Positions 1,983 to 61,050 of a stretch of DNA of 64,000 nucleotides are shown here, one piece after another. Below the pieces are notes generated by a model that saw only the letters and a list, made by a program, of their open reading frames with translations, was not told where the DNA came from and ran no database searches. The position numbers and the translations under genes are program-made. The stretch spans positions 157,965-221,964 of the forward strand of contig BDDD01002892.1 in assembly GCA_001972305.1 (NCBI GenBank), in the 5' to 3' direction. The stretch's first letter is position 1. Each line of letters starts with the position of its first letter. The DNA comes from Cephalotus follicularis (taxonomy: Eukaryota > Streptophyta > Magnoliopsida > Oxalidales > Cephalotaceae).

Positions 1983-2062
1983 CAGCTGACTATCACAGGG
2001 TAACAGTCGAAGGTCTGATGCGTGGTGTGACAGTCGACTGCCTGTTAAAGACAGTCGAGTGG
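1983..2062. repeat. TCGA-core semi-palindrome array, upstream array of the LTR
   Basis: CAGCTGAC, ACAGTCGAAG, CAGTCGACTG and ACAGTCGAGT occur in 80 bp. The TCGA cores start near 2007, 2034 and 2055, so intervals are 27 and 21 bp. The array lies about 170 bp inside the LTR start and about 250 bp upstream of the TATA-like box. Confidence 0.75.
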
Positions 2063-3089
2063 AACGGTACAGAATAGGTGTTTGTGCATGTATGTGAGAT
2101 AGAGTTGTGGCATTGCATGATGGACAGGTGTTAGGCGAAGTCACCAGTTGCCATAGCATGCAAAAAGGAGTGCCTTGCATGTGCTCTGCAGACCTGCAAC
2201 CTGCAAAGCAGAAATGGGAAGAAGAGAACAGTGAGAAAGAAATGAACATGTGAGAGAGAGAAGGAGTAAATGTTGAAAGGATGTAATGACACGGACTGAG
2301 CCTTATATCAGCTGTACATGAGCTGACTGAGTGCTAGAAAACACTGGGGATAGAGGAGAGCTTGCTGGAGAATTGTTGGAGCTTGCATGTTGAAGGATTA
2401 GATCTCAAAGAAGGAGTTGAAGCCTTGATTCCTAGTAAGCTTCCAATTTGTGATTGTGGTTGAAGTTGTAGGCTAACAGTAGTACCTACGGTTTACATGT
2501 ATACTGTCCATAATGTCAAATTTAGAAATGGTAATGAAAGTGGTCAAAAATGTGAATGTGAAGCTTAGGGGATTGTTGATAACTCTAATTCGAATTATAG
2601 TTGTTGTTATAGTTGTCAAAAGGTATATGTATATTGATTCCATTATGTAGATATATATATACATCGTCTGTCAACACGAATAAGGTTAATGAACCTGGAA
2701 TTGAAATAGAATTGGCAAAGGGTTCAAAGAGAAGTTGTAAAAGGGTAATTTTGAGGCTTAATGAATTATTGATGAGCTACTGTTGGAGTAGTAATTGTAA
2801 CTGGATAATTAGTTAAACTTACTGATTAAATGTCTGAACCTTCGAGCATGCATTGTTATAGATCAATTCTGCTGAGATTGGAAGGTTAAGTTGGTGAAAG
2901 AGCTTTGGACATTAAAGAGAGAAATCAATCCAAATTGATTTCAGGATAGCGTTTAAGGTAGGGGTAATGGCATGTTTTTGAAGATATAATATGCATATCA
3001 TGTATGGTTAATTTTCTGTTTGATTGCATGTGTTGATTGGGTTAGTATTTGGACATTGAAATGCATACTACTGCCTACTCATTTCTGGG

Positions 3090-3210
3090 CAAAGCAGTCA
3101 ACTGTTCTTCATGACAGTCGACTACTCAAACGAACCAGTCGACTGTTAAGAACAAACAGTCGACTACTCAACCAAACAGCCGACTGTTCTTGGGAACAGC
3201 CGACTGTCCT
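3090..3210. repeat. TCGA-core semi-palindrome array, six cores at 20-21 bp
   Basis: Six consecutive copies of CAG(T/C)(C)(G/A)ACT-type 10-mers have cores starting at 3098, 3118, 3139, 3160, 3180 and 3200. The intervals are 20, 21, 21, 20 and 20 bp, which is two helical turns. Bases between the cores are not repeated exactly, so this is not a simple tandem repeat. Confidence 0.85.
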
Positions 3211-4138
3211 GGGTTAAAATTCTGATACATGCTCTGATTAGACCTTAAATTGAATGTTATTAACCTGACCTCCATATGGGATGATTGTGATAGTCAATCC
3301 TGGCCTTATATAATTACATTTCAGAATTTAAACTATGTATATACTCCTTGTGAGAATTTTACAAGAATGACTATGGTACACAATGACCTTATTGAACCCT
3401 TGGATTGCTACTGTGCTTACTGCTTTGCTGTTTATGCTATGGTTATAATTAGTATATACTGTTTTGGGTGTTCATTAACACTACTACCCCTTATTTTCAA
3501 ATGATTGAACCAACTAGTGCTTTAAGCACAAATATGAGTTCCTTACGGTTTTCAAAATGGTAATGTATATTGTCAAATGATTACTGATTTTCCTCCAATG
3601 AGAGGTACTATTATTGTACTGAATATCGTTTTCCTCCTACGAGATGTACGATTACTGAACTGTAAATGTTTCAAAGAAAATAGCTTATATTGCATACTAT
3701 TGATATATGTAATATTACTACTGAATTGATTGAATTGATTGTCTATGTTTAATGCCATTAGTCGAGTGATGGCAGAGGTCACTGGATACGGAAGTGGTCC
3801 TATATGTCAGGAATTGGCTAGAGTACCCACCCAAACTATCTACCTTGCAGTTCTTATATGTTAAACTGCCCACTAACGCCGACAGTAAATGTTACATGAT
3901 CTATCATGTTCGGAGTTTAGGGTGATAGATAGGTGTGCGCAGTTTGTGCTAGGATGTAGGGACATATGTCACCCAACCACAGTATGGATTGATTGTACCC
4001 TTGTGCGGTATTCTTGCATTGTACTATCTATGGCCACTTGGCATGATTGCTTATATATTGGAATATTTAAAATACTATTTTATATATGAATTGTCATACA
4101 TGTTGCATCTATAGATTCAATCTCATGCATTATTTCCT

Positions 4139-4186
4139 ACTTAGCCAAGTGAGGACAATGGCTAACCCCTACAATTTCAGATTAAG
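4139..4186 (+). other. conserved LTR block ending in an acceptor-like CAG
   Basis: The block reads CTTAGCCAAGTGAGGACAAT, then GGCTAACCCCTACAATTTCA and GATTAAG. Close matches lie at 10961-11012 (minus), 34850-34910 (minus), 40414-40460, 46286-46330, 59339-59385 and 61941-61990, all at the same relative place in different LTR families. The pyrimidine stretch plus CAG looks like a splice acceptor; a role in 3' processing is the alternative. Confidence 0.65.
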
Positions 4187-4508
4187 CGAAGACGTATGGA
4201 AAGTGTTGCTGAAGCTTTTGGAGAGTTGCTATTTCTGTTAAGGTTGTTACTCTTATGTTGTATTTTGTTTTGTAATGAACGGTCACTCCGTGTTGTTGTT
4301 CTACTTTCCTTATGTAAAAGGATAATTGCTGGTATTGTACATGCACGTAGTATGGGCAGCGTGCAGATGACTTATATTTTATAGTCCGGTTTTTGGAATG
4401 CTTCCGCTATGGTTTTGTGAATGTTAAGATTTATTGCTGGATTATTTTACTTATTCCTGATATCACCACATATGTTGTCTAAATGTATTAGAATAATGGG
4501 GTGTGACA

Positions 4509-4958
4509 AGTCACAGAAGTTCTTCGACAGCATTGTATAGATAGGCCATTGTGGAGCCTGCTGGTGGCACGGCCGAAGCCTCGGTGTGTTTGTCCGAGCA
4601 CCGGTGGTGACCGTGTTTGATTCTTATTTGCAGAGTGTAATGGAAATGTATTGTGTATGTAGTGTGAAGAGATTGGCGAAGGATATGAGGTTTCCAAGCT
4701 CATTTGTCACTGTTGTGGTAGGTTATACTATCTGCTTGCATTCATGCATTTGAATGGATTGATATGACTGTTAATTGATTATTGTGTGCTAAATGGATTG
4801 TTACGGTTATGCATGATTTATGATTTCATGGCTTAAGGAACTGTGTACGGGTATACGGACGGGACGGAGAATTGAGAGAAGTTGAATTCTGCCTTCTCTC
4901 AATTCTAGGGTTATGGAAATGGATTTTAATAGTTTTTGAAACTGATTTTGAGTTTCAA
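4509..4958. other. unclassified repeat-derived DNA (left half)
   Basis: No gene. This stretch flanks the first element and is continuous with 7389-8430 once the solo LTR at 4959-7388 is removed. Its right part carries another core array, so it is probably an old LTR whose ends I cannot place. Confidence 0.4.
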
Positions 4959-5102
4959 TGTAATATCCTATTTCCCTGCCTATATGTTTATCGTCTCAGG
5001 TTACGTTTTGTCATATGCTATATATTACTTTCCGTTGGACCGTTTGAAATTTGTTTTTTTTTTTTAAAAAACTGTTTTATTTCATTTTACGTTCCTGGGC
5101 AT

Positions 5103-5238
5103 TAAGCGTCGATGCCATTGTTTTGGCCATCGATGCCTTAGCACATATATGTAAAGCGCTGACGCCTTATTCAAAACCGTCGACGCTTTAGTTGAAAACG
5201 GTTAAGTGCCGACGCTTTTGCGTGACCGTCGACACTTT
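5103..5238. repeat. TCGA-core array (GCGTCGATGCC type)
   Basis: Pairs of cores: GCGTCGATGCC (core 5109) with CCATCGATGCC (5130); GCGCTGACGCC (5159) with CCGTCGACGC (5180); GTGCCGACGC (5209) with CCGTCGACAC (5229). Intervals within pairs are 21, 21 and 20 bp. Cores are joined by CTTTA/CCTTA-like linkers. Confidence 0.78.
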
Positions 5239-5782: not shown

Positions 5783-6068
5783 AAATATGTCATCGACGCG
5801 TTTTTCATGTTTTAACGCTAAGCATCGACTCATTCGTTTTAAACATCGATGCCTGTATATATATATATATAACTATTTTATTCTTTTGCATGTTTTAAAA
5901 CCGTTGACGCTCTGTTTTGAGCATCGACGCTTTTACGTGTTTTGTCATTCTTTGCTTCGACGCTTTGTCACGTTTTATCGACGTTTTGTTTTAAAGCGCC
6001 AACACTATGTCTTAAACACCGACGCTTTTATTTTAAACGTCGACGCTTTTGAGCGAACGTCGACTCTT
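5783..6068. repeat. TCGA-core array, downstream array of the solo LTR
   Basis: About twelve degenerate copies of CATCGACGC, CATCGATGCC, CGTTGACGC, CACCGACGC and CGTCGACGC, most followed by TTTT. It lies downstream of the AAGGTATGAC donor-like site at 5487-5496. Confidence 0.72.
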
Positions 6069-7393: not shown

Positions 7394-8430
7394 TTTATGT
7401 TTGGAGATTATAACTTCTTTTGAACCGAATTGTAACTGACTTGAAACAGATTTTCATATGGTTTTCTTGAACTGTTGATGAACTGCGTATTTGTTGACAA
7501 ACCGTCGATGCCTTGGGGCTGATTAGTTCACGCTTTATGTTGATTAGTCAACACTCATGCGTAATTGATCAACGCTTATGCATTGTAAACGGCTATGCAT
7601 CAACGCTTGCATAATGCCTTAACCGTCGACACCTAGTACAAAGGCATCGATGCTTGACATTAAGCGTCGACGCCCAACACAGGCAGTCTACGCTTAGGTG
7701 CTAAGCGTCGATGCCTAGTGCTAAGCGTCGATGCCTAATGCCCTGCCTTATCCAAATTTCACTGTTTTACATGGTTTTCGATTTCAAACGGTTTTCATTC
7801 CAACAGGATTTCCATGGGAAGCCTCCCTAAGGCCTTGTAGCTTATTGAAATCCTATGTGATTACTAAATCAGCATTTTTAATGAATTTTCAAGGAAGGTC
7901 TAATAAAGAAATTTCCAATGCCTAAATGGATTTCAAAATGGTTGTCAATGAACTTTTAAATTGTTTTAAAAATGGTTTTGAATAGATTTCAATAGCTTCC
8001 AAAATGGTTTTCAACGGAAGGTTAGGATAGTTTGATTGGAATGTTTGGACACGAATGTCCTAATTGAACTACCTCTCCATAGGTTTAACTCTGATAGGGA
8101 CCAACAAACGGTTTTACGGTTATGGATATATGGATACGGAAACGATTTTACAAACAGTTATGAAAAATGGTTTTATAAGCGGTTTTGATGAATGTGGATC
8201 CTATACGATCCTTTCTATTAGGTCCCTATCATTTTTACGGAAATACAGTTACAGGCTACGGGTGAGGTATGGTTATGATTGTTTGAGACCGTACAGGATA
8301 ACCAGTTTATAAATCTTCATTTCCATCATGGAGAATTATGGATACAGGCCACATATTTTATGGTTACGGTTTCCTCCCTTTTTGGGTGACTTGAGCAATC
8401 ACCGCATTGTGGAGGGATACAGATACGGTA
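7394..8430. other. unclassified repeat-derived DNA (right half) with a core array
   Basis: No gene. At 7500-7736 lies a core array with CCGTCGATGCC, CCGTCGACACC, GCATCGATGC and GCGTCGACGCC; successive cores at 7625, 7647, 7667, 7687, 7708 and 7728 are 20-22 bp apart. The rest (7740-8430) is AT-rich with many TTTTAAATGG-like runs and no recognisable domain. Together with 4509-4958 it is probably one old LTR. Confidence 0.5.
7500..7736. repeat. TCGA-core array at 20-22 bp intervals
   Basis: The six right-hand cores start at 7625, 7647, 7667, 7687 (here TCTA), 7708 and 7728. The last two units are near-identical 20-mers beginning CTAAGCGTCGATGCCTA. The left part has decayed cores such as AGTCAACAC and GATCAACGC, in which TCGA has become TCAA. 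Confidence 0.8.
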
Positions 8431-11959: not shown

Positions 11960-12038
11960 CCAGAACAGTCGGCTGCCTCAGGAACCAGCCGGCTGCTGGG
12001 GGAAGTAGTCGACTGCTTTGGGTGGCAGTCGGCTGCCT
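11960..12038. repeat. TCGG/CCGG-core array with exact 20-bp spacing
   Basis: Four 10-mers: CAGTCGGCTG, CAGCCGGCTG, TAGTCGACTG and CAGTCGGCTG. Cores start at 11969, 11989, 12009 and 12029, intervals 20, 20 and 20. The array is directly preceded by CCCAGAACAGTC. Although the central bases vary (TCGG, CCGG, TCGA), the CAG...CTG arms and the spacing are kept. Confidence 0.82.
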
Positions 12039-13179: not shown

Positions 13180-13265
13180 TACCAGTCGGCTGGATTTGGT
13201 GGCCAGTCGACTGCCTTCCTCACGTGGCAGACAGTCGGTTGTTGCCTTGTGGCAGTCGGCTGTCA
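13180..13265. repeat. TCGG/TCGA-core array
   Basis: CAGTCGGCTG, CAGTCGACTG, CAGTCGGTTG and CAGTCGGCTG have cores at 13186, 13207, 13235 and 13256. Intervals are 21, 28 and 21 bp, the same 21/28 pattern as in the array at 16680-16856. Confidence 0.8.
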
Positions 13266-15230: not shown

Positions 15231-16679
15231 ACCAGCATCCCTAGTTTTTATGATTATGGGCACATATCTGTATTTATGATTGATGATCATGTCTTTGATT
15301 TGTTTATATTTAGATATTTTGTTTTTATTGTGACTCTCTTTTACTTTTTGAGTATCACTTTGAGCATTTAAATAATTCAAAGCTCTCATGTTATTTCGTT
15401 GTTGAATTTAAGCGTTTCTTTTATGAAGTTATGATGGTATTTTATTTCCTTTAATCTTTGACTCCACCCATTGGGGTATTTATTGTAATACCCTGTTCGT
15501 TCGTAAACATATTTTTACGGGTTCGTAAATACATTTTACGGATTTTTATATGTGTTTTCAGGCTTTTAATTTTGTTTAATTTTAAAAGTCCGGTTGCCCT
15601 ACGATTTGGGTTTATGTGAATTGTGCTGTCTGATATTAGTCCGATATTTGGGTATGTTATGCTATGTTGGGTTTATTTATTTTATTTTAATCCAAAATTA
15701 TTTTAATTAAAAACAAATTATTACCTTTTTATTTTTAAAATCACTTATTCCTTTTTATTATTATTCTTGTAATTTTTATAATCCATAATTCCTTTTTCTA
15801 TTATTTCTTGCATTTCCTTTTTCCTATTTTACCATTTTCTTCTTCTTTTCTCCTACTTCCTTCCACCTTCTTCCTTCTTTCCAGCAAATCCCACCATCAA
15901 ATGCCATGTTAAGTCTTCCTTTTCCATTTCAAAATCTAGAAAAGTTCCCCTTTCTTCCCCTTTTGTCAAATCTTGTCTCCTCTTTTTCCCATTATTGAGT
16001 GTCATGGCCATTTTATATGATACCTCATCTTTCCTTCATGTCACTGCCGAATCTGCCCAATTATTGTGCAATAATCTACTATGTGATTCATTCTTCAAAG
16101 TTCAAGAGGTAATCTCAACCCTTAAGTGATTGTTTTGGATTAAATTCTCTTAGTTTGCTATGTATGTCTAAGTATGTCATGGTTTTGTATCCTTCTTTCT
16201 TTGTTTTGATTCACAGCCGAATTGTATGTTGTGTTTGTGTTCCTCCTACTGTTTTCTGGGTTATCTAACATCATTAAAGGTCAGTGAATTCGTCCTCTTT
16301 AATTATGTTTTTGTTTCAATGGCTTACTTTGAGTTTTTATGCTCTTGGAGTCTTTGAGTCTTTGATTCTTGCCTAAACATGTTATCATTGTGTTAGTAAT
16401 GTTATCTGCACGTTTTATGCACCTATATATGTCACAAACTGAGTTTATAACATCTGCAATCAATTAGAAACAAAATATGGACATGTTCATGCAATATCTT
16501 CTTGCTTCCTTTTTGCAAGTTAAATCATTGAAAGGTTGTTTCTTTGTCAAATTTGTGTTTGTAAGTCACCTACAAGTCATATATAATCATATGTTTATGT
16601 CCATATGTCTCTAGTTTAATGTAGAAACCATTTGAACCATTTTCAGTAGCAAATCATCGGATTTCCAACTGTTATGTTG

Positions 16680-16856
16680 CCCAGAACAGTCGGCTGTCTG
16701 TGTGGAAAGTCGATTGGAATGGTTGTGTAGTCGACTGGAGGGAAGAACATAGTCGACTACCTGCATTTTGGGTTGAGTAGTCGACTGTTCATATGGTCCA
16801 GTCGACTGCCAAGCCTCCCCAGTCGACTGGACCCCTGTTCTAGTCGACTGTTTTGT
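16680..16856. repeat. TCGA-core array, eight cores
   Basis: Cores start at 16690, 16710, 16731, 16753, 16781, 16802, 16823 and 16844: intervals 20, 21, 22, 28, 21, 21, 21. It is preceded by CCAGAACAGTC. Read on the minus strand it gives an open frame with a recurring QST motif, because 21 bp is seven codons; I do not take that as a protein. Confidence 0.88.
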
Positions 16857-17215
16857 CCTGGAATGTGCTGTTTTCATCTGTTTTGATTCGTTTGATCCCC
16901 GAATCGATCCGAATCTTTTCCAAACACTGTTATGAGTCTGTTTAATGCTTCTGATGTGTTTTAGACTCTTATACATATGATTTTGAATATCTTTATAGAT
17001 TGTGTACTTCAAAGGAGAAATTGTTTTTGATCGCCTATTCGTAAGTACTTTGCATGCGCATAAGGTACGAATTTTCTGTTCCTTGGCTATCTGACATTCA
17101 AACTGAAACTGTTTTGATAAACATCTTCGTTTATGAAATCAACTATGTTTCATGATTTTGATACGTTTCGAATTTAAGTTGGTTTGACATTTTAATTGAT
17201 TCCGACTTTATCTAT

Positions 17216-17275
17216 ACGATATGTTATGGTACGATATGTTAGGATACGATATGTTATGATATGATATGTTATAAT
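17216..17275. repeat. short tandem repeat ACGATATGTTATG
   Basis: Four degenerate units of 14-18 bp (ACGATATGTTATGGT, ACGATATGTTAGGAT and so on). The 3' LTR holds the same repeat at 21556-21615. Confidence 0.75.
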
Positions 17276-17958
17276 ACTGTTGTGAGCAGTTTTTGAATAT
17301 GTGTGTGAAAACATATTTATGTGATTTAAGTTGATTTTGATAAATCAATTATTTTAAATTAAATACTGAGTCGCCTCCCTTGCCAAAATTATGATATGTG
17401 ATATGAATATGGCTCAATATGTTTTACGAACTACGATTTATAGCATTTTGAATTGTTCCGTAATTGTTTCGAAAAATATGCAACTGTCATTTGAATATGA
17501 TTAAACTGTCTTAACTGTTTACGATTTCAGTTATGTTATTATTGAAATATTAACGTTTTTAAATTACCATTTACTGTTTTATTTCCCTTATCCGTACTGA
17601 GGTTTGCTCAGCCGTGTTTTTGTTTTCCATGCGGCATGTTTTCTGCAGCAGCGGGGGAAAGTGTGATTGAGTGATGACCACCCTTTATGTTGGATCCTTA
17701 GGAGAGTGATCCTTATGTTATGTTTAGTGGTCTGATACATGGATTTGTATGTGTTATGTTTTAAATTGGAACTGAATTATGTTTTGAGTTTTCCGCATCT
17801 ACAAAATATGTTAAAATGTTGAGTTTTAATGTTTCGATAAGACTGCCACGTTTTCGGCTGTTATTGGTCAATAAAGCAAACTTTATGAGTTTGTTAAGTT
17901 ATGATATGTCTGATATGACCCTGTGACGACTCTCGTCGTCCGGGGGTGTTACAGATTG

Positions 17959-18130: not shown

Positions 18131-20320
18131 ATGGCACGTACAAGGAACGCTGCTCGGAGGACTGCACCCGTTGAGGCTCAGGAAGCTAGAAATGAGCCTA
18201 CTATGGAGGAGCTTGTACGACAGGCAGTTGCTCAGGAGATACGACGCGTGTTGAATGAACAGAATCAGAATCAGGACCGTAGGGAGCCGGTTGCTGCTAA
18301 TGATGCTCCAGCTGATGTCCAGTTGGGAAGAGATGCTGGGAACGGGACTGTTATGCCCACTTATGTTTGGCTACAGCGGTTCCAGAACAGAGACCACTGT
18401 CTTTCAGCTCAGCCGTGACTCCGGTGGAAGCTGAACATTGGATTGCTAATATGGACAAGATCTTTGATGTGCTCGGTTGCAGTGATGAACAGAAGATTAA
18501 GTAAGCTGTGTACAAGCTTGAGGGTGATGCTCAGAAATGGTGGAAAGCTGTGGTTTTGGCTAAGGGTGGCAACTATGCGGAGACCTTGACCTGGTCTGAG
18601 TTTTGCGAGGTCTTTTATCAGCAGAATTTTCCCACCGCTGATAAGGAGGCTTACGCCAGAGAGTTTATCAATACCAGACAGAAGGATGGAGAGTCGGTGA
18701 CAGAGTTCTTGACCCGATTCACTAGACTTGCTGGTTTTGCTGGGTCCGCTGCAGGAACAGCATTGAAGCAGGCAGAAAAGTTCAAGTGGAAGTTGCACTA
18801 TCAGTTTTGGGGTAAATTGATCAACACCAGGGTTGCTGATGTATCTGAAGTGGCTAATGCGGCTAAGAACATTGAGCTGGAAAGGTTAGATTTCCAGGCT
18901 GCTCGATAGGAGTTTGATAGAATGAGAAACAAAGGTGATTCTCAGGGGCAAGGTTCTGGACAAAATAAGAATATGAATGGCAAGCGTGGGAAGAGAAATG
19001 ATTACCGGGGATAGCAACATTCAGGTAATGACCAAAGGCAGACACGGGGAGCTGCGGATGTCCAGATTTCCAAATGTGAAGTGTGCGGTAGACAACATCC
19101 AGTGGGAGTATGCTATAAGGCTATTGGGGCCTGTTTTGTGTGTGGACAGAAAGGGCATTTCGTGAAGGATTGTCCTGACCCTCGTGCAAAGGAAAGGAAA
19201 GGAAACAATGCAGATCGTGGACAGCGCAACTTGGGAGGTCATGTCTTTGCTATCACGACTCAGCAGACAGCTAACACACCAGGTACTGTTTTGGGCCTTA
19301 TTTATGTTGGTAACCGTAGGGCTTATGTTTTGTATGATACTGGATCGACCCATTCGGTTGTAGCGAGGTCTTTTGTTCGGCATCTTGGGATGTCTCCTCA
19401 GTTGCTTGATCCAGCTTTGATTCTTTCGACCCCTACGGGTTCTTCTATTGTGATATCTGAGTGCTTTTATGCTTGTCCTCTTGTTTTCGATGATCGGGTT
19501 CGTGATACGTACCTTTTGCCTATCGACATGTACGACTTCGATATGATTTTGGGAATCAACTGGTTGGATCGTCATTGGGCTACGATCGACTGCTATGCTC
19601 GAAGTGTTCTGTTTGGGGATGTGAATAGTCCTGAGTTTGTTTTTCAGGGTTCACAGCCTAGGAAAGAAGTGAAAGTTATATCCGCTTTGAAAGCTCGGAA
19701 GTTGGTAGCTAAGGGCGCTGAAGGTTTCTTAGCTGTTGTGAAGGATGTCTCAAAGGTTGAGCCTCGCCTTGAAGACTATCCTGTGGTGCGAGAATTTTCT
19801 GATGTGTTTCCGGAAGAGTTACCGGGTTTGCCACCACAACGGGAAGTGGAGTTTACCATCGAACTCATTCCCGGGGCGACACCTATATCTAAGGCACCTT
19901 ACATAATGGCATCGTTGGAACTGCAAGAGTTGAAAGAACAGTTGCAAGAGCTGTTGGATCGGGGTTTCATTCGACCGAGTGTTTCACCGTGGGGTGCTCC
20001 GGTTCTTTTTGTTAAGAAGAAAGATGGGTCTATGAGGTTATGTATAGACTACAGAGAGTTGAACCGAATCACTGTTCGGAACAAATAACCGCTACCTAGG
20101 ATTGATGACTTGTTTGATCAACTCCAAGGTGCTCGGTATTTCTCGAAGATCGATTTGAGATCGGGATATCATCAACTTCGGATAAAGGATGAAGATGTCC
20201 CTACAACTGCTTTCCGTACTCGGTATGGGCATTATGAGTTTTTGGTGATGCCTTTCGGACTCACTAATGCACCGGCAGTTTTCATGGACCTGATGAATAG
20301 GGTTTTTCATGAGTACTTTC
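18131..20320 (+). pseudogene. gag-protease-RT remnant (gypsy)
   Basis: Gag starts at ATG 18131 (MARTRNAARRTAP). A frameshift near 18390 moves the frame before PVEAEHWIANMDKIF, and the new frame then holds to 20320. Gag core (WWKAV...FYQQNFP...QKDGESVTEFLTRFTRLA) lies at 18530-18730, and CCHC knuckle [14 protein letters not shown] at 19135-19175. The aspartic protease motif YDTGSTHS lies near 19333, with [17 protein letters not shown] at 19515-19568. RT begins near 19800 and is cut after [18 protein letters not shown]. Stops: TAA 18502-18504, TAG 18907-18909, TAG 19012-19014, TAA 20086-20088. It cannot make RT. Confidence 0.92.
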
Positions 20321-21022
20321 TCCTCTTTTCCCCATTATTGAGTGTCATGGCCATTTTATATGATACCTCATCTTTCCTTCATGTCACTGCCGAATCTGCC
20401 CAATTATTGTGCAATAATCTGCTGTGTGATTCATTCTTCAAAGTTCAAGAGGTAATCTCAACCCTTAATTGATTCTTTTGGATTAAATTCTCTTAGTTTG
20501 CTATGTATGTCTAAGTATGTCATGGTTTTTTATCCTTCTTTCTTTGTTTTGATTCACAGCCGAATTGTGTGTTGTGTTTGTGTTCCTCCTACTGTTTTCT
20601 GGGTTATCTAACATCATTAAAGGTCAGTGAATTCGTCCTCTTTAATTATGTTTTTGTTTCAATGGCCTACTTTGAGTTATTATGCTCTTGGAGTCTTTGA
20701 GTCTTTGATTCTTACCTAAACATGTTATCATTGTGTTAGTAATGTTATCTGCACGTTTTATGCACCTATATATGTCACAAACTGAGTTTATAACATCTGC
20801 AATCAATTAGAAACAAAAACTGGACATGTTCATGCAATATCTTCTTGCTTCCTTTTTGCAAGTTAAATCATTGAAAGGTTGTTTCTTTGTCAAATTTGTG
20901 TTTGTAGGTCACCTACAAGTCATATATAATCATATGTTTATGTCCATATGTCTCTAGTTTAATGTAGAAAGCATTTGAACCATTTTCAGTAGCAAATCGT
21001 CGGATTTGCAGTTGTTCTGTTG

Positions 21023-21199
21023 CTCAGAACAGTCGACTGTCTGTGTGGACAGTCGACTGGAATGGTTGTGTAGTCGACTGGAGGGAAGAACACAGTCGAC
21101 TACCTGCATTTTGGGTTGAGTAATCGACTGTTCATATGGTCCAGTCGACTGCCAAGCCTCCCCAGTCGACTGGACCCCTGTTCTAGTCGACTGTTTTGT
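21023..21199. repeat. TCGA-core array, eight cores (3' LTR copy)
   Basis: Cores start at 21033, 21053, 21074, 21096, 21124, 21145, 21166 and 21187: intervals 20, 21, 22, 28, 21, 21, 21, identical to the 5' copy. Nearly all are the perfect palindrome AGTCGACT. CTCAGAACAG stands directly upstream. Confidence 0.88.
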
Positions 21200-21724
21200 C
21201 CTGGAATGTGCTGTTTTCAACTGTTTTGATTCGTTTGATCCCCGAATCGATCCGAATCTTTTCCAAACACTGTTATGAGTATGTTTAATGCTTCTGATGA
21301 GTTTTAGACTCTTATACATATGATTTTGAATATCTTTATAGATTGTGTACTTCAACGGAGAAATTATTTTTGATGGCCTATTCGTAAGTACTTTGCAAGC
21401 GCATAAGGTACGGATTTTCTGTTCCTTGGCTATCTGACATTCAAACTGAAACTGTTTTGATAAACATCTTCGTTTATGAAATCAACAATGTTTCATGATT
21501 TTGATACGTTTCGAATTTAAGTTGGTTTGACATTTTAATTGATTCCGACTTTATCTATACGATATGTTATGGTACGATATGTTAGGATACGATATATTAT
21601 GATATGATATGTTATAATACTGTTGTGAGCAGTTTTTGAATATGTGTGTGAAAACATATTTATGTGATTTAAGTTGATTTTGATAAATCAATTATTTTAA
21701 ATTAAATACTGAGTATTGTACCCA

Positions 21725-21804
21725 CCTATGGGGCGTATCCATAGGCACGTCGTGGGCCTGGCACGGGAACGTGACACTTCCGTAGCGGTGTGATTAGACT
21801 ACGG
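21725..21804 (+). other. hairpin-prone block shared by two LTR families
   Basis: CCTATGG (21725) pairs with CCATAGG (21739), and CCGTAG (21780) pairs with CTACGG (21799) around GCGGTGTGATTAGA. The solo LTR 4959-7388 has the second stem-loop at 6593-6617 with one mismatch, plus flanking CGGCGTCTC. Conservation of stem and loop in otherwise diverged LTRs suggests a function at RNA or DNA level. Confidence 0.55.
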
Positions 21805-39403: not shown

Positions 39404-39410
39404 TATAAGA
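39404..39410 (+). promoter_or_regulatory. candidate TATA box of the 38793 LTR
   Basis: TATAAGA lies before CCTCCCCACTTATCTCTCTC. The same place reads GCATAAGA in the 3' LTR (44473), GCATAAGG in the solo LTR (49257) and GCATAAAAC in the 59768 LTR (60292). Only positional evidence. Confidence 0.45.
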
Positions 39411-40460: not shown

Positions 40461-40829
40461 TGGAGTGGTCTTGACATGGAGCATGCACGGAGATTTAAAG
40501 AGAAGACTTGTTATTTCTCTTATTTATGTATTTGGGTTATTGAACATTGATCATGTTACTTGGATTTTGTAACAAATAGTATTTTGTTATCTCGTACTGA
40601 TGTATTATTTCACGCTCCGTTTTGGGCGATCAACAGTTATATTTGGATTATCGGGCATCACGTAGTATGGGATGCGTGATGTGTTTTTATTTTCGGCTCG
40701 TTTATGCTGTTGCTTCCGCTATCGAAGGTTTTAAATTATTGGTAATTTGCATGAGCTGGATTATCTTGTGTTGATTGCTTTACCACTTATATGTTGTCTA
40801 TTAAGTTGGAAAACGGGGTGTGACAAACG

Positions 40830-40841: not shown

Positions 40842-40939
40842 ATATATCCATTATATGCTTAGCTTGGATAAGTTGCTTGGCAATCAATAAATTGTTTTCC
40901 TAAAGTCGTGACTAACCATCGTCCTTCTTATAGGAACAA

Positions 40940-43816
40940 ATGGACCGAAGAAGAACGCGTGGTAGGGATAGGGCCGCTGGAGCCAATGCCCCTGAAGGAG
41001 TGAATGTTCCTCAAGATAATAGAGATCCAATGACCCGGATTGCTGACTATTTCCAGCAACAGATGGCCTTTAATATGGCCAATGCGGAGGAGATGCGCCA
41101 TCACTACGCACAAGCCCGACCGCAACACAGAGCTCCCGATCATTGCCAGGGAGAGGATGGTAGTCAATTCGGAAGGGACATCGAGAGATTCATGAGACAA
41201 AACCCACCTAGTTTCCGGGGAGAGCTTGACGCCACAATTGCTGAAAGATGGCTTCAAGATTTAGAGAAGATTTTTGCAGTGATGGACTGCACCGATGCTC
41301 AGAAGCTGAAATTTGCCGTGTACCGTCTATGGGGAGAGGCCACTCACTGGTGGGAGATGGTCAAAGCAAAGTGGGAGTCAGCTGGACTTGACGCCACATG
41401 GGAGAGGTTCCAGACAGAGTTCCTCGATTCCTATGTACCTCGGATGGAGCAAGAACGGAGGGAGAGTGAGCTTCTGGAGTTACGGTAGGGGGAGATGTCT
41501 GTGGCCGAATACCAGGCCAGATTCATGGAGCTATCCAGACACTCACCATATCTGGTAGCTGATGATGCAAAGAAGATAAGGAGGTTTTTGAAGGGTTTAC
41601 GACCGGACCTTCGGTCGATGATTAGGGCTATGGAGCTGGGTACCTTTTCAGAGGTCGCACAGAAGGCGAGACTGCTAGAGAGCATATCTGGTGAGGACCG
41701 AGCAGAGAGGGCTCGGGTGCAACAAACTAAACAGAACCCGACAAGACCAGCTTCTTCAAAATGGCAAGGTAGTGGTTCTCCGAGTAAGTCATCGAAGAAC
41801 AGATTTGGGCAGACTGCCACACTGAGGACTCCTAGTCAGGGGAGTAATGCGGGGACCGGAGCCTGTTATCACTGTGGTCGGAAGGGCCACTTGTAGAAGG
41901 ATTGTTGGAGGATGAATGGGCTATGTTTGAGGTGTGGAGCATTTGGCCATTCGGTGAGAGACTGCCCGAAGGGTTCAGCTACAGCACCTACTGGGCCGGG
42001 GAGCAGCAGTGGTGCGCTTAAACCGTACGAGGAAAACTACCCGACCCATGACCTTGAGCTTGCAGCTATTATCTTTGCCCTTCAGAAGTGGAGACACTAT
42101 CTTTACGGGGTGCAGTTTGAGATCTTCACCGATCATAAAAGTTTGAGATACCTGTTCTGCCAGGACACGCTAAACATGAGACAGCGCAGATGGGTAGAAT
42201 TCTTTAATGATTATGACTGTAGTATCTAGTACCACCCGGGGAAAGCGAAGGTAGTCGCTGATTCCTTGAGCCGCAAGGCTATGCTTGCTAGTACGATGGT
42301 GTCACAATGGAAGATGCTGGAAGACTTCCAGGAATGGTACCCGTTTAATCAGTCACCAGGAATCATTCTAGCAGAGATACGGATAGAACCAGTGTTACTA
42401 CATCGCATCAAAGAGGCACAACCGCATGATCCTGAGTTACAGAGAATTCGAGAGAATCTGGATTCGAAGTCTGATTTTAAAGTACACGAAGACGGTATTA
42501 TGAGATATCGGGGACGTGTATGTCTTCCGAATGAGTCTAGAGTGAAGGATGTGCTACTCCGCGGGGCTCATAAATCTATGTACAGCATTCATCCAGGTAG
42601 CACGAAGATGTATCAAGACATGAAGAAGTGTTATTGGTGGCCCGGCATGAAGCGGGAGATAGAAGAGAATGTGGCGAAGTGTTGGACTTGCCAGATAGTT
42701 AAGGCCGAGCACCAGAGACCGGCAGGTTTGCTACAACCTTTGCCAATTCCAGAGTGGAAGTGGGAACATGTTACGATGGATTTTGTTTCGGGTTTTTCTT
42801 TGACTCGGAACCATCGTAATGCTGTGTGGGTTGTCGTGGATAGACTCACCAAATCAGCGCACTTTCTGCCGACACATGTCACAGATTCTGCGAGCAAGCT
42901 GGCTCGGTTGTATGTGAAGGAGATAGTGAGGCTACACGGGGTTCCAGTCAGCATCGTATGTGATAGGGACGCTATCTTCACTTCCAACTTCTGGAAGACA
43001 TTTCAGTCAGCTTTCGGGACGAAGCTGAACTTGAGTACTGCTTTCCACCGTCAGACAGACGGACAGTCGGAGCGTACCATCCAAACCTTGGAGGATATGC
43101 TTCGGGCTTGTGTGATTGATTTTGCTGGTACCTGGGAGGATCATATTCCTCTGATAGAGTTTTCTTACAATAACAGCTATCACTCCAGTATTGGTATGGC
43201 TCCATACGAAGCACTGTATGGAAGAAAGTGTAGGTCGCCTATCTGTTGGGACGAGGTTGGGGATCGACCGTTGCTTGGGTCGGATTTGGTAGAGGAGACT
43301 TTGAAGAAAGTCAAGTTCATCAAAGAGAAGTTGCTAGTAGCGCAAAGTCGGCAGAAGAGCTATGTCGACAATGTGAAAAGGAGACGTCTGATCTTTAACG
43401 TGGGTGATCACGTGTTCTTGAAAGTATCACCATGGAAGGGCGTGCAACGGTTTGGAAAGAAGGGCAAATTAGCTCCACGCTACATTGGTCCTTTTGAGAT
43501 TTTGGAGAGAGTCGGGGAGGTAGCCAATCAGCTTGCTTTACCTCCTGCACTTTCAAACGTGCACGTCGTCTTCCACATATCTATGTTAAGGAGATATATC
43601 CTGGACCCGACACATGTCCTGGATTATGATACTGTTCATGTACAGGATGATCTATCTTGTGAGGAGTTACCTGTGCGGATTCTCAATCGGAAGACGCAGA
43701 CTTTGAGGAACCGAACCATCTCCATGGTCAAGGTTCAATGGCAGTTTCACAAACCTGATGAGGCAACTTGGGAGCGTGAGGAGGACATCCAAGAACGCTA
43801 CCCGCACTTGTTCTAG
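40940..43816 (+). pseudogene. gag fused in frame to RNase H-integrase-chromodomain
   Basis: Gag begins at ATG 40940 (MDRRRTRGRDRAAGAN). Capsid motifs: FMRQNPPSFRG near 41192, AERWLQDLEKIF near 41243, WWEMVKAKW near 41350. Two CCHC knuckles (CYHCGRKGHL and [14 protein letters not shown]) at 41862-41965. At 42018 gag joins RNase H ([18 protein letters not shown]). Integrase from 42266: zinc region (HKSMYSIHPGS...CWTCQ), core with [15 protein letters not shown] and DGQSERTIQ, then the chromodomain near 43700-43816 ending ERYPHLF. Stops TAG at 41486, 41894 and 42227; each is CAG in sibling copies. The 516-residue integrase frame (42266-43816) is open. No protease, no RT. Confidence 0.93.
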
Positions 43817-44029: not shown

Positions 44030-44177
44030 AAAAGACATCGACGTCTTTGGAAAAGACGTCGACGCCTTTTGGGGTAAGGTACACGTGAATGAACGTCGAC
44101 ATGGAGAGAAGGCATCGACACCTTCTTACCAAAAAGAGAAAAGACATCGATGTCTAAGGAAAGACGTCTACGCCTTT
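44030..44177. repeat. TCGA-core doublet array (3' LTR copy)
   Basis: Same layout as 38960-39107. One core is changed to GACGTCTACGCC (44163) and another to GACATCGATGTC, a perfect palindrome (44145). Confidence 0.88.
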
Positions 44178-44931: not shown

Positions 44932-45022
44932 AAGACATCGACGCTTATATAAAAGAAGTCGATGCCTTCATGTGAATGTGTGAAAGACATCGATGTCTTT
45001 TAATTGACATCGATGCCTTTTC
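44932..45022. repeat. TCGA-core doublets, downstream array
   Basis: GACATCGACGC and AAGTCGATGCC, then GACATCGATGTC and GACATCGATGCC. A further doublet, GACATCGACGCC with GACATCGAAGCC, lies at 45240-45272. In the 5' LTR only the first doublet survives, because of the gap. Confidence 0.82.
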
Positions 45023-45458
45023 TGGGGAATTCGTTGAACCGTGATATTTGTTTCAGATGGCCATTTAGCCACTTGGGAATCACCTATTTGATTTCAATTT
45101 GATGTTCTGGTTATGTTCCATTTAACCAGTAGCATACCTTACACGTTTATAGAGTGGGATTCGTTTATATGAGGGATTAAAAGGTTGGATTCTACCCTCT
45201 AGAATCAAGACTCGCGAGCTAATGCTCTCTGGTTTGAAAAAGACATCGACGCCTTAAGGAATGACATCGAAGCCTTTTCCCCTGATCAGTAGAATTTCAC
45301 TTGAATGGAACCTGTTAGACCCGAAATGACCCTAGAAACGATCTTAGATGCATTCTGAGCATAGGATTGCATTATTAATGTGATATACATTATGGTGGAT
45401 TCCAAAGAGTGATAACCATTTTGAAAGGCTTGCATGATTGAATAATCATTTTGTACGA

Positions 45459-48640: not shown

Positions 48641-49692
48641 TGTAACGCCCGGTATTTTCCTGAATGTAATATTCCATTTATGATGTAATCTTAAATTTGG
48701 ATTAATGAGAATGATGAGTTTTTGAACTCAAAGTATGCTTAAAACCCTAATTATGGACTTAGAATGGAATGTGTATGTTAAAGTTGAAACGACAACGTTC
48801 TGTGAAGAAGACATCGACGTCTTTTGGAAAGACGTCGACTCCTTTGGGAGCCAGGGCACACGTGAAGGAAGAGACATGCACGTCGACATTGGGAGAAGGC
48901 ATCGACACCTTCTCACCAAACTGGAAAAGACATCGACGTCTAAGGAAAGACGTCGACGCCTTTGTATGAATGGCCAACACGTTCTTCGTCGGCAGAAATA
49001 CATGTGGGGAGAATTGTTCAGAGGCTACCTAACGCCTTTTCGAGTGCGATTCGACGTGTTGAGCATGTCTGTGTACTGACCAGAAGCACTAAAACCTAAC
49101 CTCACATGGAACATGCAAGGATTATGCCATCCTAACATGCAACCTGCAGAAAGAAGATTAGAAAATGAAAAAGAATATGCAGAAAGAGAGAAAGTGGGAG
49201 AGATCTCGGGTTGGCCTGTGTAATGACAAAGGGAAAAGGGTAGGAGGAAGCTATCTGCATAAGGATACCCTTCCCCACCTCTCTCTCTCTAACCCCTACT
49301 GTAACAGATTGATGGAGTGGACATGTTATGGAGCATGCACGGAGACTTAAAGAGAAAGCTTGGATAATCTCTTTTATATTTGAGTTTTGAACATTTATCA
49401 TGATATGTATTTGGGATTATTTTGTAACGTGGTTTATATTATTGTCTTGTATTGATGTATATTGTTTTATTTCACGCTCCGTTTCGGGCGATCAACAGTC
49501 TTTTTGGGTTATTTATAAACATCACGTAGTATGGGATGCGTGATGTGTTCGGCTTATTTTTGATGCTTCCGCGAGATGTTGTTGGATATGAAAAGTTTTA
49601 AATTTATGGAAATTTTGCATAAGCCGGATTTATATGTTGATTGCCGTACCACCCTATATGTTGTCTATGTTCTATGGAAACGGGGTGTGACA
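48641..49692 (+). mobile_element. shortened solo LTR of the 38793 family
   Basis: It starts TGTAACGCCCGGTATTTTCC and ends ACGGGGTGTGACA. Its flanks, GGTGG and GATGG, match at four of five bases. It has the doublet array (48805-48965) and the GCATAAGG box, then jumps from CTCTCTCTCT (49290) to AACCCCTACTG (49291) inside the acceptor-like block, losing the donor site, second array and tandem repeats. Confidence 0.82.
48805..48965. repeat. TCGA-core doublet array
   Basis: Cores at 48814 and 48835, 48883 and 48902, 48933 and 48953: 21, 19 and 20 bp within doublets. CGTTCTGTGAAG just upstream is a decayed anchor. Confidence 0.88.
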
Positions 49693-50581: not shown

Positions 50582-50918
50582 AAAGGCGTCGATGTCCTTG
50601 GCAAAAGACATCGATGCGTATCAGGGCATGCCCTTGAAAACGGTAGAAGGACGTCGATGTCTTTGAAAGACATCGATGTCTTTCTCAGTTGGCAGAAGAC
50701 GTCGATGTCCTTGGACAAAGGCGTCGACGCTTTTCAATAAAAATGACCTAGGAATGCACATCAATGTCTCGTGTCGATACCTTTTCTGGGAAAAGACATC
50801 TCAAGGCAAAGACGTCGATGTCTTTCAAAGACATCGATGTCTTTGCTGCGGAATCAAGGAGGTCGCATCCCAAAGCGAAAGACATCGATGTCCATGGGCA
50901 AGGCGATCGATGTCTTTG
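50582..50918. repeat. TCGA-core doublet array, five doublets
   Basis: Cores at 50589 and 50611, 50654 and 50673, 50702 and 50724, 50815 and 50834, 50885 and 50907: spacing 22, 19, 22, 19 and 22 bp. Several are perfect 12-bp palindromes GACATCGATGTC. The array lies on the 3' side of a TATA candidate on the plus strand, hence downstream of it on the LTR's own strand. Confidence 0.88.
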
Positions 50919-57083: not shown

Positions 57084-57237
57084 AAAACACATCGACGCCT
57101 TTAGGATCACGTCGACGCCTTTGAGGCAAAATGGCTCACGTAGCTGCATGCACATGCACATCGATGCGCACGGAGACATCGACGTCCTCGTGTAAAATGG
57201 TTAAAGACATCGACGTCCATGTAAGGACGTCGACGCC
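57084..57237. repeat. TCGA-core doublet array
   Basis: Cores at 57092 and 57112, 57161 and 57179, 57210 and 57230: 20, 18 and 20 bp within doublets. Seven bases upstream is CTGTTCTGGGG. Confidence 0.9.
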
Positions 57238-58094: not shown

Positions 58095-58435
58095 AAAGAC
58101 ATCGACGCCTTTTAAATAACATCGACGTCTTTTTAGTTTTGCCTTGTTACTGATTGAAAGGGATCGACGTTTATGGGAAGCCTTCGACGCCGTAGGCTAC
58201 CTACCTGGATTTTGACGTGAAAGACGTTGACGCCTAAGGTTCCTACCTTAAAGCGTCGCCGCCATCAACAATACGCTGTCATTTTAGGGTTCCAGACCTT
58301 GAGCCTCGACGCGTATGAAATGGACATCGATGCCTTTGGTAGAAGAACGCGCTGACACTGAGACTTGGACATCGACGCCTGATGGAAAAGACATCGACGC
58401 CTTTTCGAAAGACATCGACGTCTTCGTTACTGTTT
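58095..58435. repeat. TCGA-core array, downstream
   Basis: GACATCGACGCC, AACATCGACGTC, GGATCGACG, CTTCGACGCC, GACGTTGACGCC, GCGTCGCCGCC, CCTCGACGCG, GACATCGATGCC, GACATCGACGCC (three times) and GACATCGACGTC. Many pairs are 19-22 bp apart. It is followed by AACGATCCCGATTCCTATT. Confidence 0.85.
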
Positions 58436-59135: not shown

Positions 59136-59338
59136 GTTACTATGTTTGTTGATATAGCCCTTACTATTGTACTGTTACTATATACATATATTTCTTATAT
59201 ATGTAACACTGATATTTTACTGTACCGTCATACGTATATATAGTTTCATATATGTATAAACTGGGTCTCCACTGCACTGCATCATTTATGCATTCATATC
59301 ATGACATGCATTATATTGATCCCGAACTGCTGTTATGA

Positions 59339-59385
59339 CTTGGCCAAGTGAGGACAAAGGCTAACCCCCTACCTTGCAGATTTAT
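59339..59385 (+). other. conserved acceptor-like LTR block
   Basis: CTTGGCCAAGTGAGGACAAA, GGCTAACCCCCTACC and TTGCAGATTTATGCAG. AG at 59378-59379. The putative intron from 57854 would be about 1.5 kb. Confidence 0.6.
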
Positions 59386-59917
59386 GCAGTGGACTGTTGG
59401 ATCGGCATGGACGAAGATCAAGTTGTTATATTCTTGATTTTGTTTATCCTTCTGTTTTGTATTAAACCCATGTGGTTTATGGTTTTCGGATGTATCATCG
59501 TTATGGTTCTGTTTCTGAAGGAATTTTGTGTTTTACTGTAATTCACGCCCTGTTTTATGGGCAATTAACCTTGATGGCTTGTATTTGGGTAGCGTACGGT
59601 ATGGGACGCACGTTACGTGTTATAGCTTATGAACTTGTTATGCTTCCGCAACTGACAGTTGGTTTAAAAGTTTTAAATTTTTTGGTTTTTACATGAGCTG
59701 TATTTCATGTTAATTGCCTTTACCGCTTTAATGTTGCATTTTCCTGAACGGGGTGTGACACTTAGGGTGTAAAGCCCGAAAATTTCATGTATTGTAATTT
59801 CACAATGTAAATGTACTTTATTTATGGAATTAATAAAAACATGGATTTTTGGAATTTGATGATGTTGATTTTAAATACATTAAGTACTTAGAAGTGTGAT
59901 TGCTCAGTATGTACACT

Positions 59918-60055
59918 AAGAGCAGTCGACTGGTTGACTGCGTATGGGAGCAGTCGACTGGTGGGATGAACCAGTCGACTGGCCAACTGTCGAGCCACAT
60001 GGTAACGATCAGCCAGGCCAGCAGCCGGCTGTTGGGTGTGGACGGTCGACTGGAT
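59918..60055. repeat. TCGA-core array, CAGTCGACTG type
   Basis: Cores at 59926, 59954, 59975 and 59990, then CAGCCGGCTG (60025) and GGTCGACTGG (60046). Intervals include 28, 21 and 21 bp. The sequence around it is closely related to the LTR at 56906, whose array uses a different motif. Confidence 0.85.
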
Positions 60056-60291
60056 CGCGCTCTATTTTGTTGCATGTGATGGAAATCACATGCCACGGCT
60101 GACAGATGGGAGTGGGTGCCATCTGTGTTTCATGCAGCTAAAGGAAAGGATGAAGACGACACCTGTGTTTCATGCAAACCTCATGGGGGGGAGGAGTTTA
60201 GACCTGTGAGTGTGTGCATGCATGTGGAGAAGGAAAGTGGCATTTAGTGCCATGTGAGAGGAGCTAAGGAAGTGAGGGAGAGAAACTCCCT

Positions 60292-60300
60292 GCATAAAAC
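60292..60300 (+). promoter_or_regulatory. candidate TATA box
   Basis: GCATAAAAC before a CTTCCCTCATCTCCTTCATC initiator-like pyrimidine run. Same relative place as 39404, 44473 and 49257. Positional evidence only. Confidence 0.45.
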
Positions 60301-60875
60301 ATCTTCCCTCATCTCCTTCATCCTGGCACTGAAAAGTCTAAGAACCAAAGAGGACAGTAGAGAAAAAGACAGAGAAAAGAGGGAAGGGAGTGTTTCTCCA
60401 TTGTTGAAGCTTGGAGCTCGGGTTGGAGCTACTGGACTATTCTTGGAGCTACTGGGCTTGGAGTTGGAACTTCTGGGGAGCCCAAAACATCACTGTTGGG
60501 ACACAAAGAGGTGGACTTACAGATTCCTAACTTGGAATCGCAAGGTATGGGAAGTTATGATTGTAAATTGGAGTTCAATATTACTGCATGTTGTGTGATT
60601 GGTTGTCTGCTAGTATAAGCCATAATGCTCAGTTGATATGACCATGATTACTACTAGTTTTACGCATGCCATGTTACTGTTGAGAATCTTTGAACTTATG
60701 TGCATGCATGATGAGTTTTATCTTAGTATTGGATTACTGGATAAGATGCATGCTACCGTTGTGTTCTATGAGACTGTGAAGGGCTGAATGATTATTTTCT
60801 GCCTTGAGAACTTTTATTGGATGCTAGTAATGATCTGTTTAAGTGGTATATATCAGATTGCATGCAACTGTTTCC

Positions 60876-61050
60876 CAGAACAGTCGACAGTCGAAGGAAG
60901 ATAGCCGACTACTCAATCGAAACAGTCGACTGTTGAAGGGTGACAGTCGACTGCCTGATGAACCAGTAGGTTGGTAGAAGGAACCAGACGGCTACTCATG
61001 TACTGAATTCCCAGAACAGCCGACTGGTGGAGAATCCAGCCGACTGCCAA
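60876..61050. repeat. TCGA-core array, CAGTCGACTG type, downstream
   Basis: Cores at 60884, 60905, 60926, 60947, 60967 (GTAGG variant), 60988 (ACGG variant), 61020 and 61040: intervals 21, 21, 21, 20, 21, 32 and 20. CCCAGAACAGTCGAC opens the array and CCCAGAACAGCCGAC occurs again at 61010. Confidence 0.88.

What the first reader, a model, noticed from the sequence alone, without database searches (positions are those of the whole stretch)
1983..61050. Helically phased TCGA semi-palindrome arrays in the LTRs of many element families
Seen directly: more than twenty arrays of 10-12-bp semi-palindromes recur in LTRs across the window. Core-to-core distances are 19-22 bp again and again: 3098/3118/3139/3160/3180/3200; 11969/11989/12009/12029; 16781/16802/16823/16844; 60884/60905/60926/60947. 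That is two turns of B-DNA, placing every core on the same face. Linker sequence is not conserved, so simple tandem duplication explains it poorly. Inference: binding sites for a dimeric protein in a cooperative filament or paired complex (transcription factor, silencing factor or element-encoded protein). I know of no described LTR feature of this form.
Basis: partly seen in the sequence, partly recalled or inferred. Interest (0 to 1): 0.9.

Follow-up and report, generated by a model that had tools for sequence, protein, structure and literature searches.

The report
Phased palindrome arrays in retrotransposon LTRs
Copies of a large group of jumping genes in this genome carry rows of short mirror-image DNA sites spaced about two turns of the helix apart, and related families carry different versions of the site at the same place, which suggests docking rows for a paired DNA-binding protein whose target has shifted over evolution.

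Summary
The window holds 143 TCGA-type semi-palindromic cores in 30 clusters, against 18.8 cores and 0.34 clusters in shuffles. GTCGAC pairs occur 105,145 times at 21 bp, 582 at 26 bp, 12,877 at 28 bp. CRTCGAYG pairs occur 51,044 times at 20 bp, 3,228 at 25 bp. The carriers are long-LTR Ty3/gypsy chromoviruses.

Recent tandem duplication explains little: 3 of 92 neighbouring 20-bp units are 85% or more identical. Cores outlive linkers in 46 of 49 comparisons of diverged LTRs.

New here: related LTRs carry different core classes at the same position, A (CAGYCGACTG) or B/C (AAGACRTCGAYGYCTT, AAGCGTCGACGCTT). The motif changed in concert while position and spacing stayed.

Best reading: DNA-level binding arrays for a symmetric factor, probably host-encoded. 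Binder and effect on transcription are not shown.

The parts
2008..2056 (.). class A array, steps 27, 21
3098..3201 (.). class A array of 5 cores (6 with the degenerate core at 3098), steps 20-21
5110..5230 (.). class C/B array
5794..6061 (.). class C/B arrays
7627..7729 (.). class C/B array
11970..12030 (.). class A array, steps 20, 20, 20
13187..13257 (.). class A array, steps 21, 28, 21
15484..17953 (+). LTR (TGTAATAC...GTGTTACA) with class A array
16691..16845 (.). class A array of 8 cores, steps 20, 21, 22, 28, 21, 21, 21
20319..22583 (+). partner LTR copy, 97% identical, lacking its first ~490 bp
21034..21188 (.). same 8-core class A array in the partner LTR
35937..36169 (.). class B/C arrays
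36381..36452 (.). class B/C array, steps 19, 31, 21
37212..37262 (.). class B array, steps 19, 31
38793..40828 (+). class B LTR (5' copy; partner begins at 43863); end is the end of the alignment, not a seen terminus
38969..39098 (.). class B array of 6 cores near the LTR start
39868..39889 (.). class B pair further into the same LTR
40934..43813 (+). internal region of the class B element: gag frames, then integrase and chromodomain (the RT part is missing relative to the element at 52-57 kb)
44039..44148 (.). class B array in the LTR beginning at 43863
44939..45268 (.). class B arrays, second position of the same LTR
48815..48954 (.). class B array of 6 cores in the LTR beginning at 48641
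50590..50908 (.). class B arrays (one C core)
57093..57231 (.). class B array of 6 cores, first position, LTR beginning at 56906 after a polypurine tract
58103..58416 (.). class B arrays (one C core), second position of the same LTR
59927..60047 (.). class A array, first position, in an LTR (about 59765-61654) homologous to the class B LTR at 56906
60885..61041 (.). class A arrays, second position of that LTR

Best explanation
The arrays are cis-regulatory binding platforms in the LTRs of a large group of Ty3/gypsy chromoviruses (probably Tekay-like; lineage inferred). Each 10-16 bp core, centred on a CpG, usually within TCGA, is read as DNA by a symmetric dimer. Neighbouring dimers sit two helical turns apart so that they touch or bind cooperatively, in short blocks separated by wider gaps of 27-31 bp or more. 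The block raises or protects LTR transcription like an orientation-independent enhancer, which is why elements keep it. The family-specific outer letters of the half-site (GACTG, GAYGYC, GACGCT) differ in all cores of an LTR together because the element lineage moved to another binder, or followed a changing one; a host transcription-factor family is the likelier source. Shown: cores, spacing, conservation, preferred LTR positions, class difference at homologous positions. Inferred: protein binding, cooperativity, effect on transcription, host origin of the binder.
For: Spacing contrast of 180-fold between 21 and 26 bp and 16-fold between 20 and 25 bp. Adjacent steps quantised against a random-placement null. 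Cores better conserved than neighbouring linkers in 46 of 49 pairs of same-class LTRs; core CpGs 0.71-0.84 identical against 0.42-0.56 for other CpGs in the A and B groups. Few duplicate-like neighbours: whole 20-bp units at 85% identity or more are 1 of 59 in A and 2 of 33 in B; class-A linkers 37% identical between neighbours, 30% between loci. The first ~120 bp of 15 LTRs align across classes while the array that follows differs in class; in the window, LTRs at 56906 and about 59765 match 82% over the first 100 bp and 75% over a 1.3-kb stretch from behind the second array onwards, but carry B and A arrays. All 11 class-A LTRs among the 23 examined hold only A cores in their first 1.5 kb. 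No strand preference of predicted RNA structure (16 of 36 segments more stable in sense), and the asymmetric core variant points opposite ways in two clades (CCGA against TCGG), both fitting double-stranded DNA. One full-length element: gag, protease, RT, RNase H, integrase zinc-binding, chromodomain and no other recognisable frame of about 100 codons or more.
Against: Class-A arrays also use 27-29 bp steps, not a whole number of turns, and in the 23-LTR set the best single period was 23 bp, not 10.4. No binding, expression or methylation data. No TATA box could be placed relative to the arrays, so a promoter-proximal position is not shown. Class C shows little excess core conservation (0.63 against 0.56, core CpGs 0.57). 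The conservation test is biased upwards because cores were chosen by their match to a consensus in one sequence and may steer the alignment. Tandem Repeats Finder does flag several arrays as 19-21 bp repeats, e.g. 3114-3185 (75% matches) and two-copy class-B pairs at 85-95%, so some older or local duplication is possible. Predicted RNA folds of the arrays are unusually stable, so an RNA role is not excluded.
Confidence: 0.6

Rival explanations
1. Sequence-specific anti-silencing or targeting: the arrays are the address tag of a fast-evolving trans-acting protein that keeps its own family's LTRs unmethylated, as VANC proteins do for VANDAL transposons. The class change is a specificity switch.
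For: VANC targets are dense arrays of a short motif in non-coding parts, and motif type differs between subgroups (PMC5735166, passages). Here too the motif is dense, in LTRs and class-specific at homologous positions. On the 700-bp integrase-end tree the three classes need 3 changes, and class B is rejected as one clade (p-AU 0.0057); C falls among B.
Against: No extra gene recognised in the one full-length element read. Gag does not sort with class: B gag at 52.1 kb is 84% identical to A gag at 62.3 kb but 76% to B gag at 40.8 kb. A against B/C needs only one change in the best tree, with weak support (67/89). VANC motifs lie in one orientation and spread by tandem repeats; these are near-symmetric and rarely look duplicated.
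Confidence: 0.15
2. RNA-level function or by-product: transcribed palindromes form hairpins that serve the RNA or feed small RNAs.
For: RNA folds of four arrays have z-scores of -5.6, -4.6, -6.3 and -2.9 against +1.7 and +0.9 for two LTR controls. Sirevirus palindromes are linked to small RNAs by Bousios et al. 2016, as cited in PMC10760457 (passages). With narrow cores fixed, real linkers fold somewhat better than shuffled ones (mean z -1.0, 7 of 31 under -2).
Against: Neighbouring cores are no more complementary to each other than random cores (0.809 against 0.825 in A, 0.717 against 0.736 in B). With cores widened and degenerate cores also fixed, linkers add nothing (mean z -0.05 in 31 arrays). 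Sense is not more stable than antisense (16 of 36, mean difference -0.9 kcal/mol).
Confidence: 0.12
3. Neutral sequence: descended tandem repeats or chance, spread by copying of the LTRs.
For: Arrays of related families are homologous, copy number inflates the genome counts, and Tandem Repeats Finder flags some arrays.
Against: Shuffles give 0.34 clusters against 30. Linkers have diverged while cores and steps remain. CpG-bearing cores should decay fastest in silenced DNA (established knowledge).
Confidence: 0.05
4. Nucleosome phasing: regularly spaced G+C-richer cores fix the rotational setting of a nucleosome or exclude it, without a specific binder.
For: Steps near two helical turns; class-A pair distances in the 264-kb set give best period 10.3 bp.
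Against: Does not need palindromes, fixed letters or class purity; 28-bp steps break the phase.
Confidence: 0.08

Closest known systems
Repeated motifs (RM boxes) in Sirevirus LTRs (Bousios et al. 2010, PMC2829016; section 9 and passages read)
   Same: Dyad-symmetric 10-20 bp motifs, 3-14 copies per 3' LTR in their Table 3, clustered in the upper half of the LTR, CpG-bearing, differing between families; two have a TCGA centre (Vitis CGGTCGACCG, Tnd-1 ACAATCGATTGT).
   Different: Those are Ty1/copia elements, with a CGG-CCG core in 12 of 13, and the authors call the motif Sirevirus-specific. In the parts read no spacing rule, no helical phasing and no class change at homologous LTR positions is reported.
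VANC target repeats of VANDAL transposons (PMC5735166, passages; PMC10398659, abstract)
   Same: Dense short motifs in non-coding parts of a plant transposon, with motif types that change between subfamilies.
   Different: One orientation, multiplied by tandem repeat formation, and paired with an element-encoded protein; none recognised here.
Arrays of cis-regulatory repeats in retrotransposon LTRs generally (stated with references in PMC10760457, passages; Tnt1 B-boxes recalled, no call)
   Same: Repeated, sometimes palindromic, regulatory motifs in LTRs.
   Different: Copy number, two-turn spacing and family-specific core classes are unusual in comparison, as far as recalled.

Membership tests
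Sirevirus RM boxes | Host element is a Ty1/copia Sirevirus | tested here: not met
   Ty3-type gag, RVP_2, RVT_1, SH3_Tf2-1 and chromodomain
Sirevirus RM boxes | Palindromic motif in at least 8 copies per element | tested here: met
   up to 18 cores in the first 1.5 kb of one LTR; 21 of 23 LTRs have two or more, 2 of 23 none
Sirevirus RM boxes | CGG-CCG core | tested here: not met
   centre is TCGA, with CCGA or TCGG variants in class A
Sirevirus RM boxes | Clustered upstream of a conserved TATA box | tested here: inconclusive
   no shared TATA box found downstream of the array in four LTR copies
VANC-type anti-silencing targets | Element encodes the sequence-specific protein | tested here: not met
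   only gag-pol domains in 15 open frames of the stretch with one full element; frames under 100-110 codons not scanned
VANC-type anti-silencing targets | Motifs multiplied by tandem duplication | tested here: not met
   3 of 92 neighbouring 20-bp units at 85% identity or more; 0 of 21 class-A linker pairs at 70% or more; old duplication not excluded
VANC-type anti-silencing targets | Binding causes loss of methylation | not testable with these tools
   no methylation data
Ty3/gypsy chromovirus (carrier element) | gag-pol order with integrase before a chromodomain, LTRs with TG...CA ends and polypurine tract | tested here: met
Tekay lineage of chromoviruses | RT phylogeny with reference Tekay elements | not tested
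   no reference set at hand; long LTRs are only suggestive

The most novel reading that the evidence does not exclude
The LTR arrays are interchangeable address codes: one retrotransposon group keeps a fixed two-turn docking geometry but rewrites the half-site letters of up to 18 cores per LTR in concert, because it co-evolves with a dimeric reader whose specificity changes quickly. This would be an arms race or parasitic trans-use of activators between element families, comparable in logic to VANC systems but built on symmetric, helically phased sites in LTRs.
Probability: 0.2. Interest if true: 0.85.

Novelty: new variant of a known kind. Interest (0 to 1): 0.6.

Why it matters
LTR promoters of abundant plant-type repeats are poorly understood because they diverge too fast to align. 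Here a grammar (core, two-turn step, preferred places, class purity) survives the divergence, so regulatory parts of LTRs can be read from sequence and binder candidates tested directly. The concerted class change makes the question of how transposons and their regulators follow each other directly testable. If the binder is a host factor, over a hundred thousand site pairs would be a large sink or network for it.

Tried and rejected
G-box-like sites in the wide gaps: seen by eye in some arrays, but only 2 of 43 gaps hold one; dropped. Heptad-coding explanation of the 21-bp step (7 codons): rejected because 20, 22 and 28 bp steps break the frame, although an antisense 175-codon open frame spans the array in two LTR copies. 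Exact '10.4 bp ladder' for all distances: the best single period in the 23-LTR set was 23 bp (10.4 bp gives 0.36 against a null of 0.05), while 10.3 was best for class A and 9.9 for class B in the 264-kb set; I therefore claim a preferred two-turn step, not a strict helical ladder. TATA search: nothing shared. Class B and class C are not sharply separate; C-class LTRs also hold B-like cores and L049 one A-like core. Six paper searches aimed at this form (full text of open-licence papers only; judged by the listings) showed no paper on it in chromoviruses or with helical spacing; Bousios et al. 2016 is not held and is known only through PMC10760457.

Rows dropped: L031 and L037 were left out of the integrase-end tree, because they stood on very long branches and their upstream 700 bp seem not to be homologous; L043 and L047, which have no cores, were in that tree without a class. 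In one search two loci (L044, L048) were turned the wrong way and L050 was missing; one search corrected this. Only the first 1.5 kb of the junction LTRs was fetched.
Full report
What was claimed.

The quoted cores are at the quoted places. With three core versions and a 75% match threshold the window has 143 cores in 30 clusters of at least two, 24 of at least three; 50 first-order shuffles average 18.8 cores, 0.34 and 0.02 clusters. The window is part of a 1.58-Gb genome in 9,746 contigs (plant by inference from the elements and genome size, species not given). GTCGAC pairs number 105,145 at 21 bp, 582 at 26 bp and 12,877 at 28 bp, with 1,224, 110 and 65 for the reversed-letter control CAGCTG. 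CRTCGAYG pairs number 51,044 at 20 bp and 3,228 at 25 bp, controls 92 and 15. These are copies, not independent origins. In twenty 10-kb stretches from evenly numbered contigs (200 kb, about 12 kb of it masked) GTCGAC pairs peak at 20-21, 41-42, 62 and 83 bp.

The carriers. Pfam gives Retrotrans_gag, zf-CCHC, RVP_2, RVT_1, RNase H, integrase zinc-binding, SH3_Tf2-1 and chromodomain for array-bearing elements: Ty3/gypsy chromoviruses. Their LTRs begin TGTAATAC, TGTAACAC, TGTAACGC or TGTAATGC, and the ends seen are G[TC]GTTACA; 3' LTRs follow a polypurine tract ending GGGGTGGA. That junction pattern occurs 10,015 times in the genome, against 18 for the control. One full-length element (L029-L030, LTRs of about 2.77 kb, 95.7% identical) has gag-pol frames in sense; the first gag frame opens about 360 bp after the 5' LTR and the chromodomain frame ends about 55 bp before the 3' LTR. 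All 15 listed open frames of at least 110 (L029) or 100 (L030) codons were scanned: 5 of 7 gag-pol-strand frames have retroelement domains, the other 2 of those and the remaining 8 frames match nothing. An insertion related to another LTR lies inside this element.

A sample of LTRs. I chose 20 of the first 100 listed junctions, to include the different LTR starts, and fetched 700 bp upstream and 1.5 kb of LTR. With two LTRs of the window and that of the full-length element this makes 23. Of these 21 have two or more cores in the first 1.5 kb; L043 and L047 have none. In the TGTAAC-type LTRs of classes A and B, arrays lie at about 150-320 bp and again from about 800 bp to the end of what was fetched; the TGTAATAC type has one at about 935-1370 bp, with a lone core at 700 in L035.

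Spacing. In 31 arrays with 178 cores, 58.5% of 147 adjacent steps are 19-22 bp (null 13.5%, maximum of 500 simulations 22.4%) and 0.7% fall in 23-26 or 32-40 bp (null 25%, minimum 15.6%). Class A uses mostly 20-22 and 27-29 bp, class B mostly 20-21 and 31 bp. Class-A steps of 41-43 bp often hide a decayed core (sequences). 28 bp is 2.7 turns, so 'all on one face' is too strong; the data support blocks of sites two turns apart with wider joints.

Little recent tandem duplication. Whole 20-bp units of neighbours 19-22 bp apart are 85% identical or more in 1 of 59 class-A and 2 of 33 class-B pairs; mean identity is 0.63 and 0.67, most of it from the cores. Class-A linkers of neighbours are 37% identical against 30% for linkers of different loci, and 0 of 21 pairs reach 70%. 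Neighbouring cores resemble each other slightly more than cores of other LTRs in A (0.885 against 0.856) and not in B (0.758 against 0.767). Against this, Tandem Repeats Finder flags 3114-3185 at 75% and some two-copy class-B pairs at 85-95%, so older or local duplication is possible. Arrays of different families are homologous as wholes: they descend from older arrays.

Conservation. Between LTRs of one class, cores are 0.63-0.76 identical and adjoining linkers 0.51-0.59; 46 of 49 LTR pairs have higher core than linker identity. CpGs in cores are kept (0.71-0.84 in A and B) where other CpGs are not (0.42-0.56). Class C is weak (cores 0.63 against 0.56, core CpG 0.57). Cores were picked by consensus match in one sequence, so the excess is somewhat inflated.

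Core classes. Class A is CAGYCGACTG, class B AAGACRTCGAYGYCTT, class C about AAGCGTCGACGCTT (15 cores only for C). All 11 class-A LTRs hold A cores only; B and C mix to some extent, and L044, L045 and L049 have one A-like core each. In the 264 kb of window and sample, same-class pairs within 160 bp number 367 (A) and 143 (B), mixed pairs 7 (two-class scheme). The first ~120 bp of 15 LTRs align across A, B and C, and at about the same place the array follows with different letters. The window shows this in neighbours: the LTRs at 56906 and about 59765 are 82% identical over the first 100 bp, and 75% over 1.3 kb that starts behind the second array and runs past the LTR end, with B arrays in one and A arrays in the other. 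On the 700-bp integrase-end tree (21 LTRs; L031 and L037 left out) the three classes need 3 changes; A against B/C needs one in the best tree (support 67/89), and B alone is rejected as one clade (p-AU 0.0057), C falling among it. So one A-to-B/C change suffices; repeated change is shown only between B and C. Gag similarity does not follow class. Recombination between families is likely and was not separated from in-place change.

DNA or RNA. RNA folds of four arrays are more stable than shuffles (z -5.6, -4.6, -6.3, -2.9; two LTR controls +1.7, +0.9). But palindromes pair by necessity: neighbouring cores are not more complementary than random cores, linkers add nothing once widened and degenerate cores are fixed (mean z -0.05; -1.0 with narrow cores), and the sense strand is the more stable in only 16 of 36 segments. 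The asymmetric variant of the class-A core is CCGA in one clade (41 of 69) and TCGG in the other (11 of 32), so polarity relative to transcription differs between clades. This favours a DNA-level role.

Mechanism. A symmetric dimer on each core, with neighbours two turns apart, is the simplest reading of palindromy, spacing and core conservation. The binder is unknown. No extra element gene was recognised, and gag does not track class, so a host factor is favoured; a trans-acting factor of another element is not excluded. Effect on transcription is inferred from LTR position and conservation only; no TATA box could be placed.

Known relatives. Sirevirus LTRs carry palindromic repeated motifs, including TCGA-centred ones (PMC2829016, section 9), which the authors considered specific to Sireviruses. 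The present arrays extend the kind to Ty3/gypsy chromoviruses and add a two-turn step and concerted class change. VANC target arrays (PMC5735166, passages) offer the nearest model for motif turnover, but differ in orientation, origin by duplication and presence of the gene.

Noticed in passing
window 14591-15009: 72-bp tandem repeat, 3.8-5.6 copies of about 70% matches, outside the TCGA arrays.
   Followed up: no
window 39971-40093 and 45841-45963: 30-bp repeat, 4.1 copies, 93-94% matches, in both LTR copies of the class B element.
   Followed up: no
window 16611-17138 and 20954-21481, minus strand: 175-codon open frame antisense across the class A array in both LTR copies.
   Followed up: partly
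window 22884-23697/27068-27881 and 27875-28197/34304-34626: Two LTR pairs without TCGA arrays.
   Followed up: no
class A LTRs among L032-L050 and L029-L030: The asymmetric core variant has opposite polarity in the TGTAATAC and TGTAAC clades.
   Followed up: partly
class B LTR starts, e.g. window 38793-39100: A CACGTG or CACGTA word lies between the second and third core of the first array in several class B LTRs; not general in wide gaps.
   Followed up: partly
window 56906-61654: Two LTRs of different class lie with a short internal remnant between them, as after recombination between elements.
   Followed up: no
G000, CAGCTG pairs: The reversed-letter control CAGCTG is itself commoner at 21 bp (1,224) than at 26 or 28 bp (110, 65), perhaps a related or decayed motif.
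   Followed up: no
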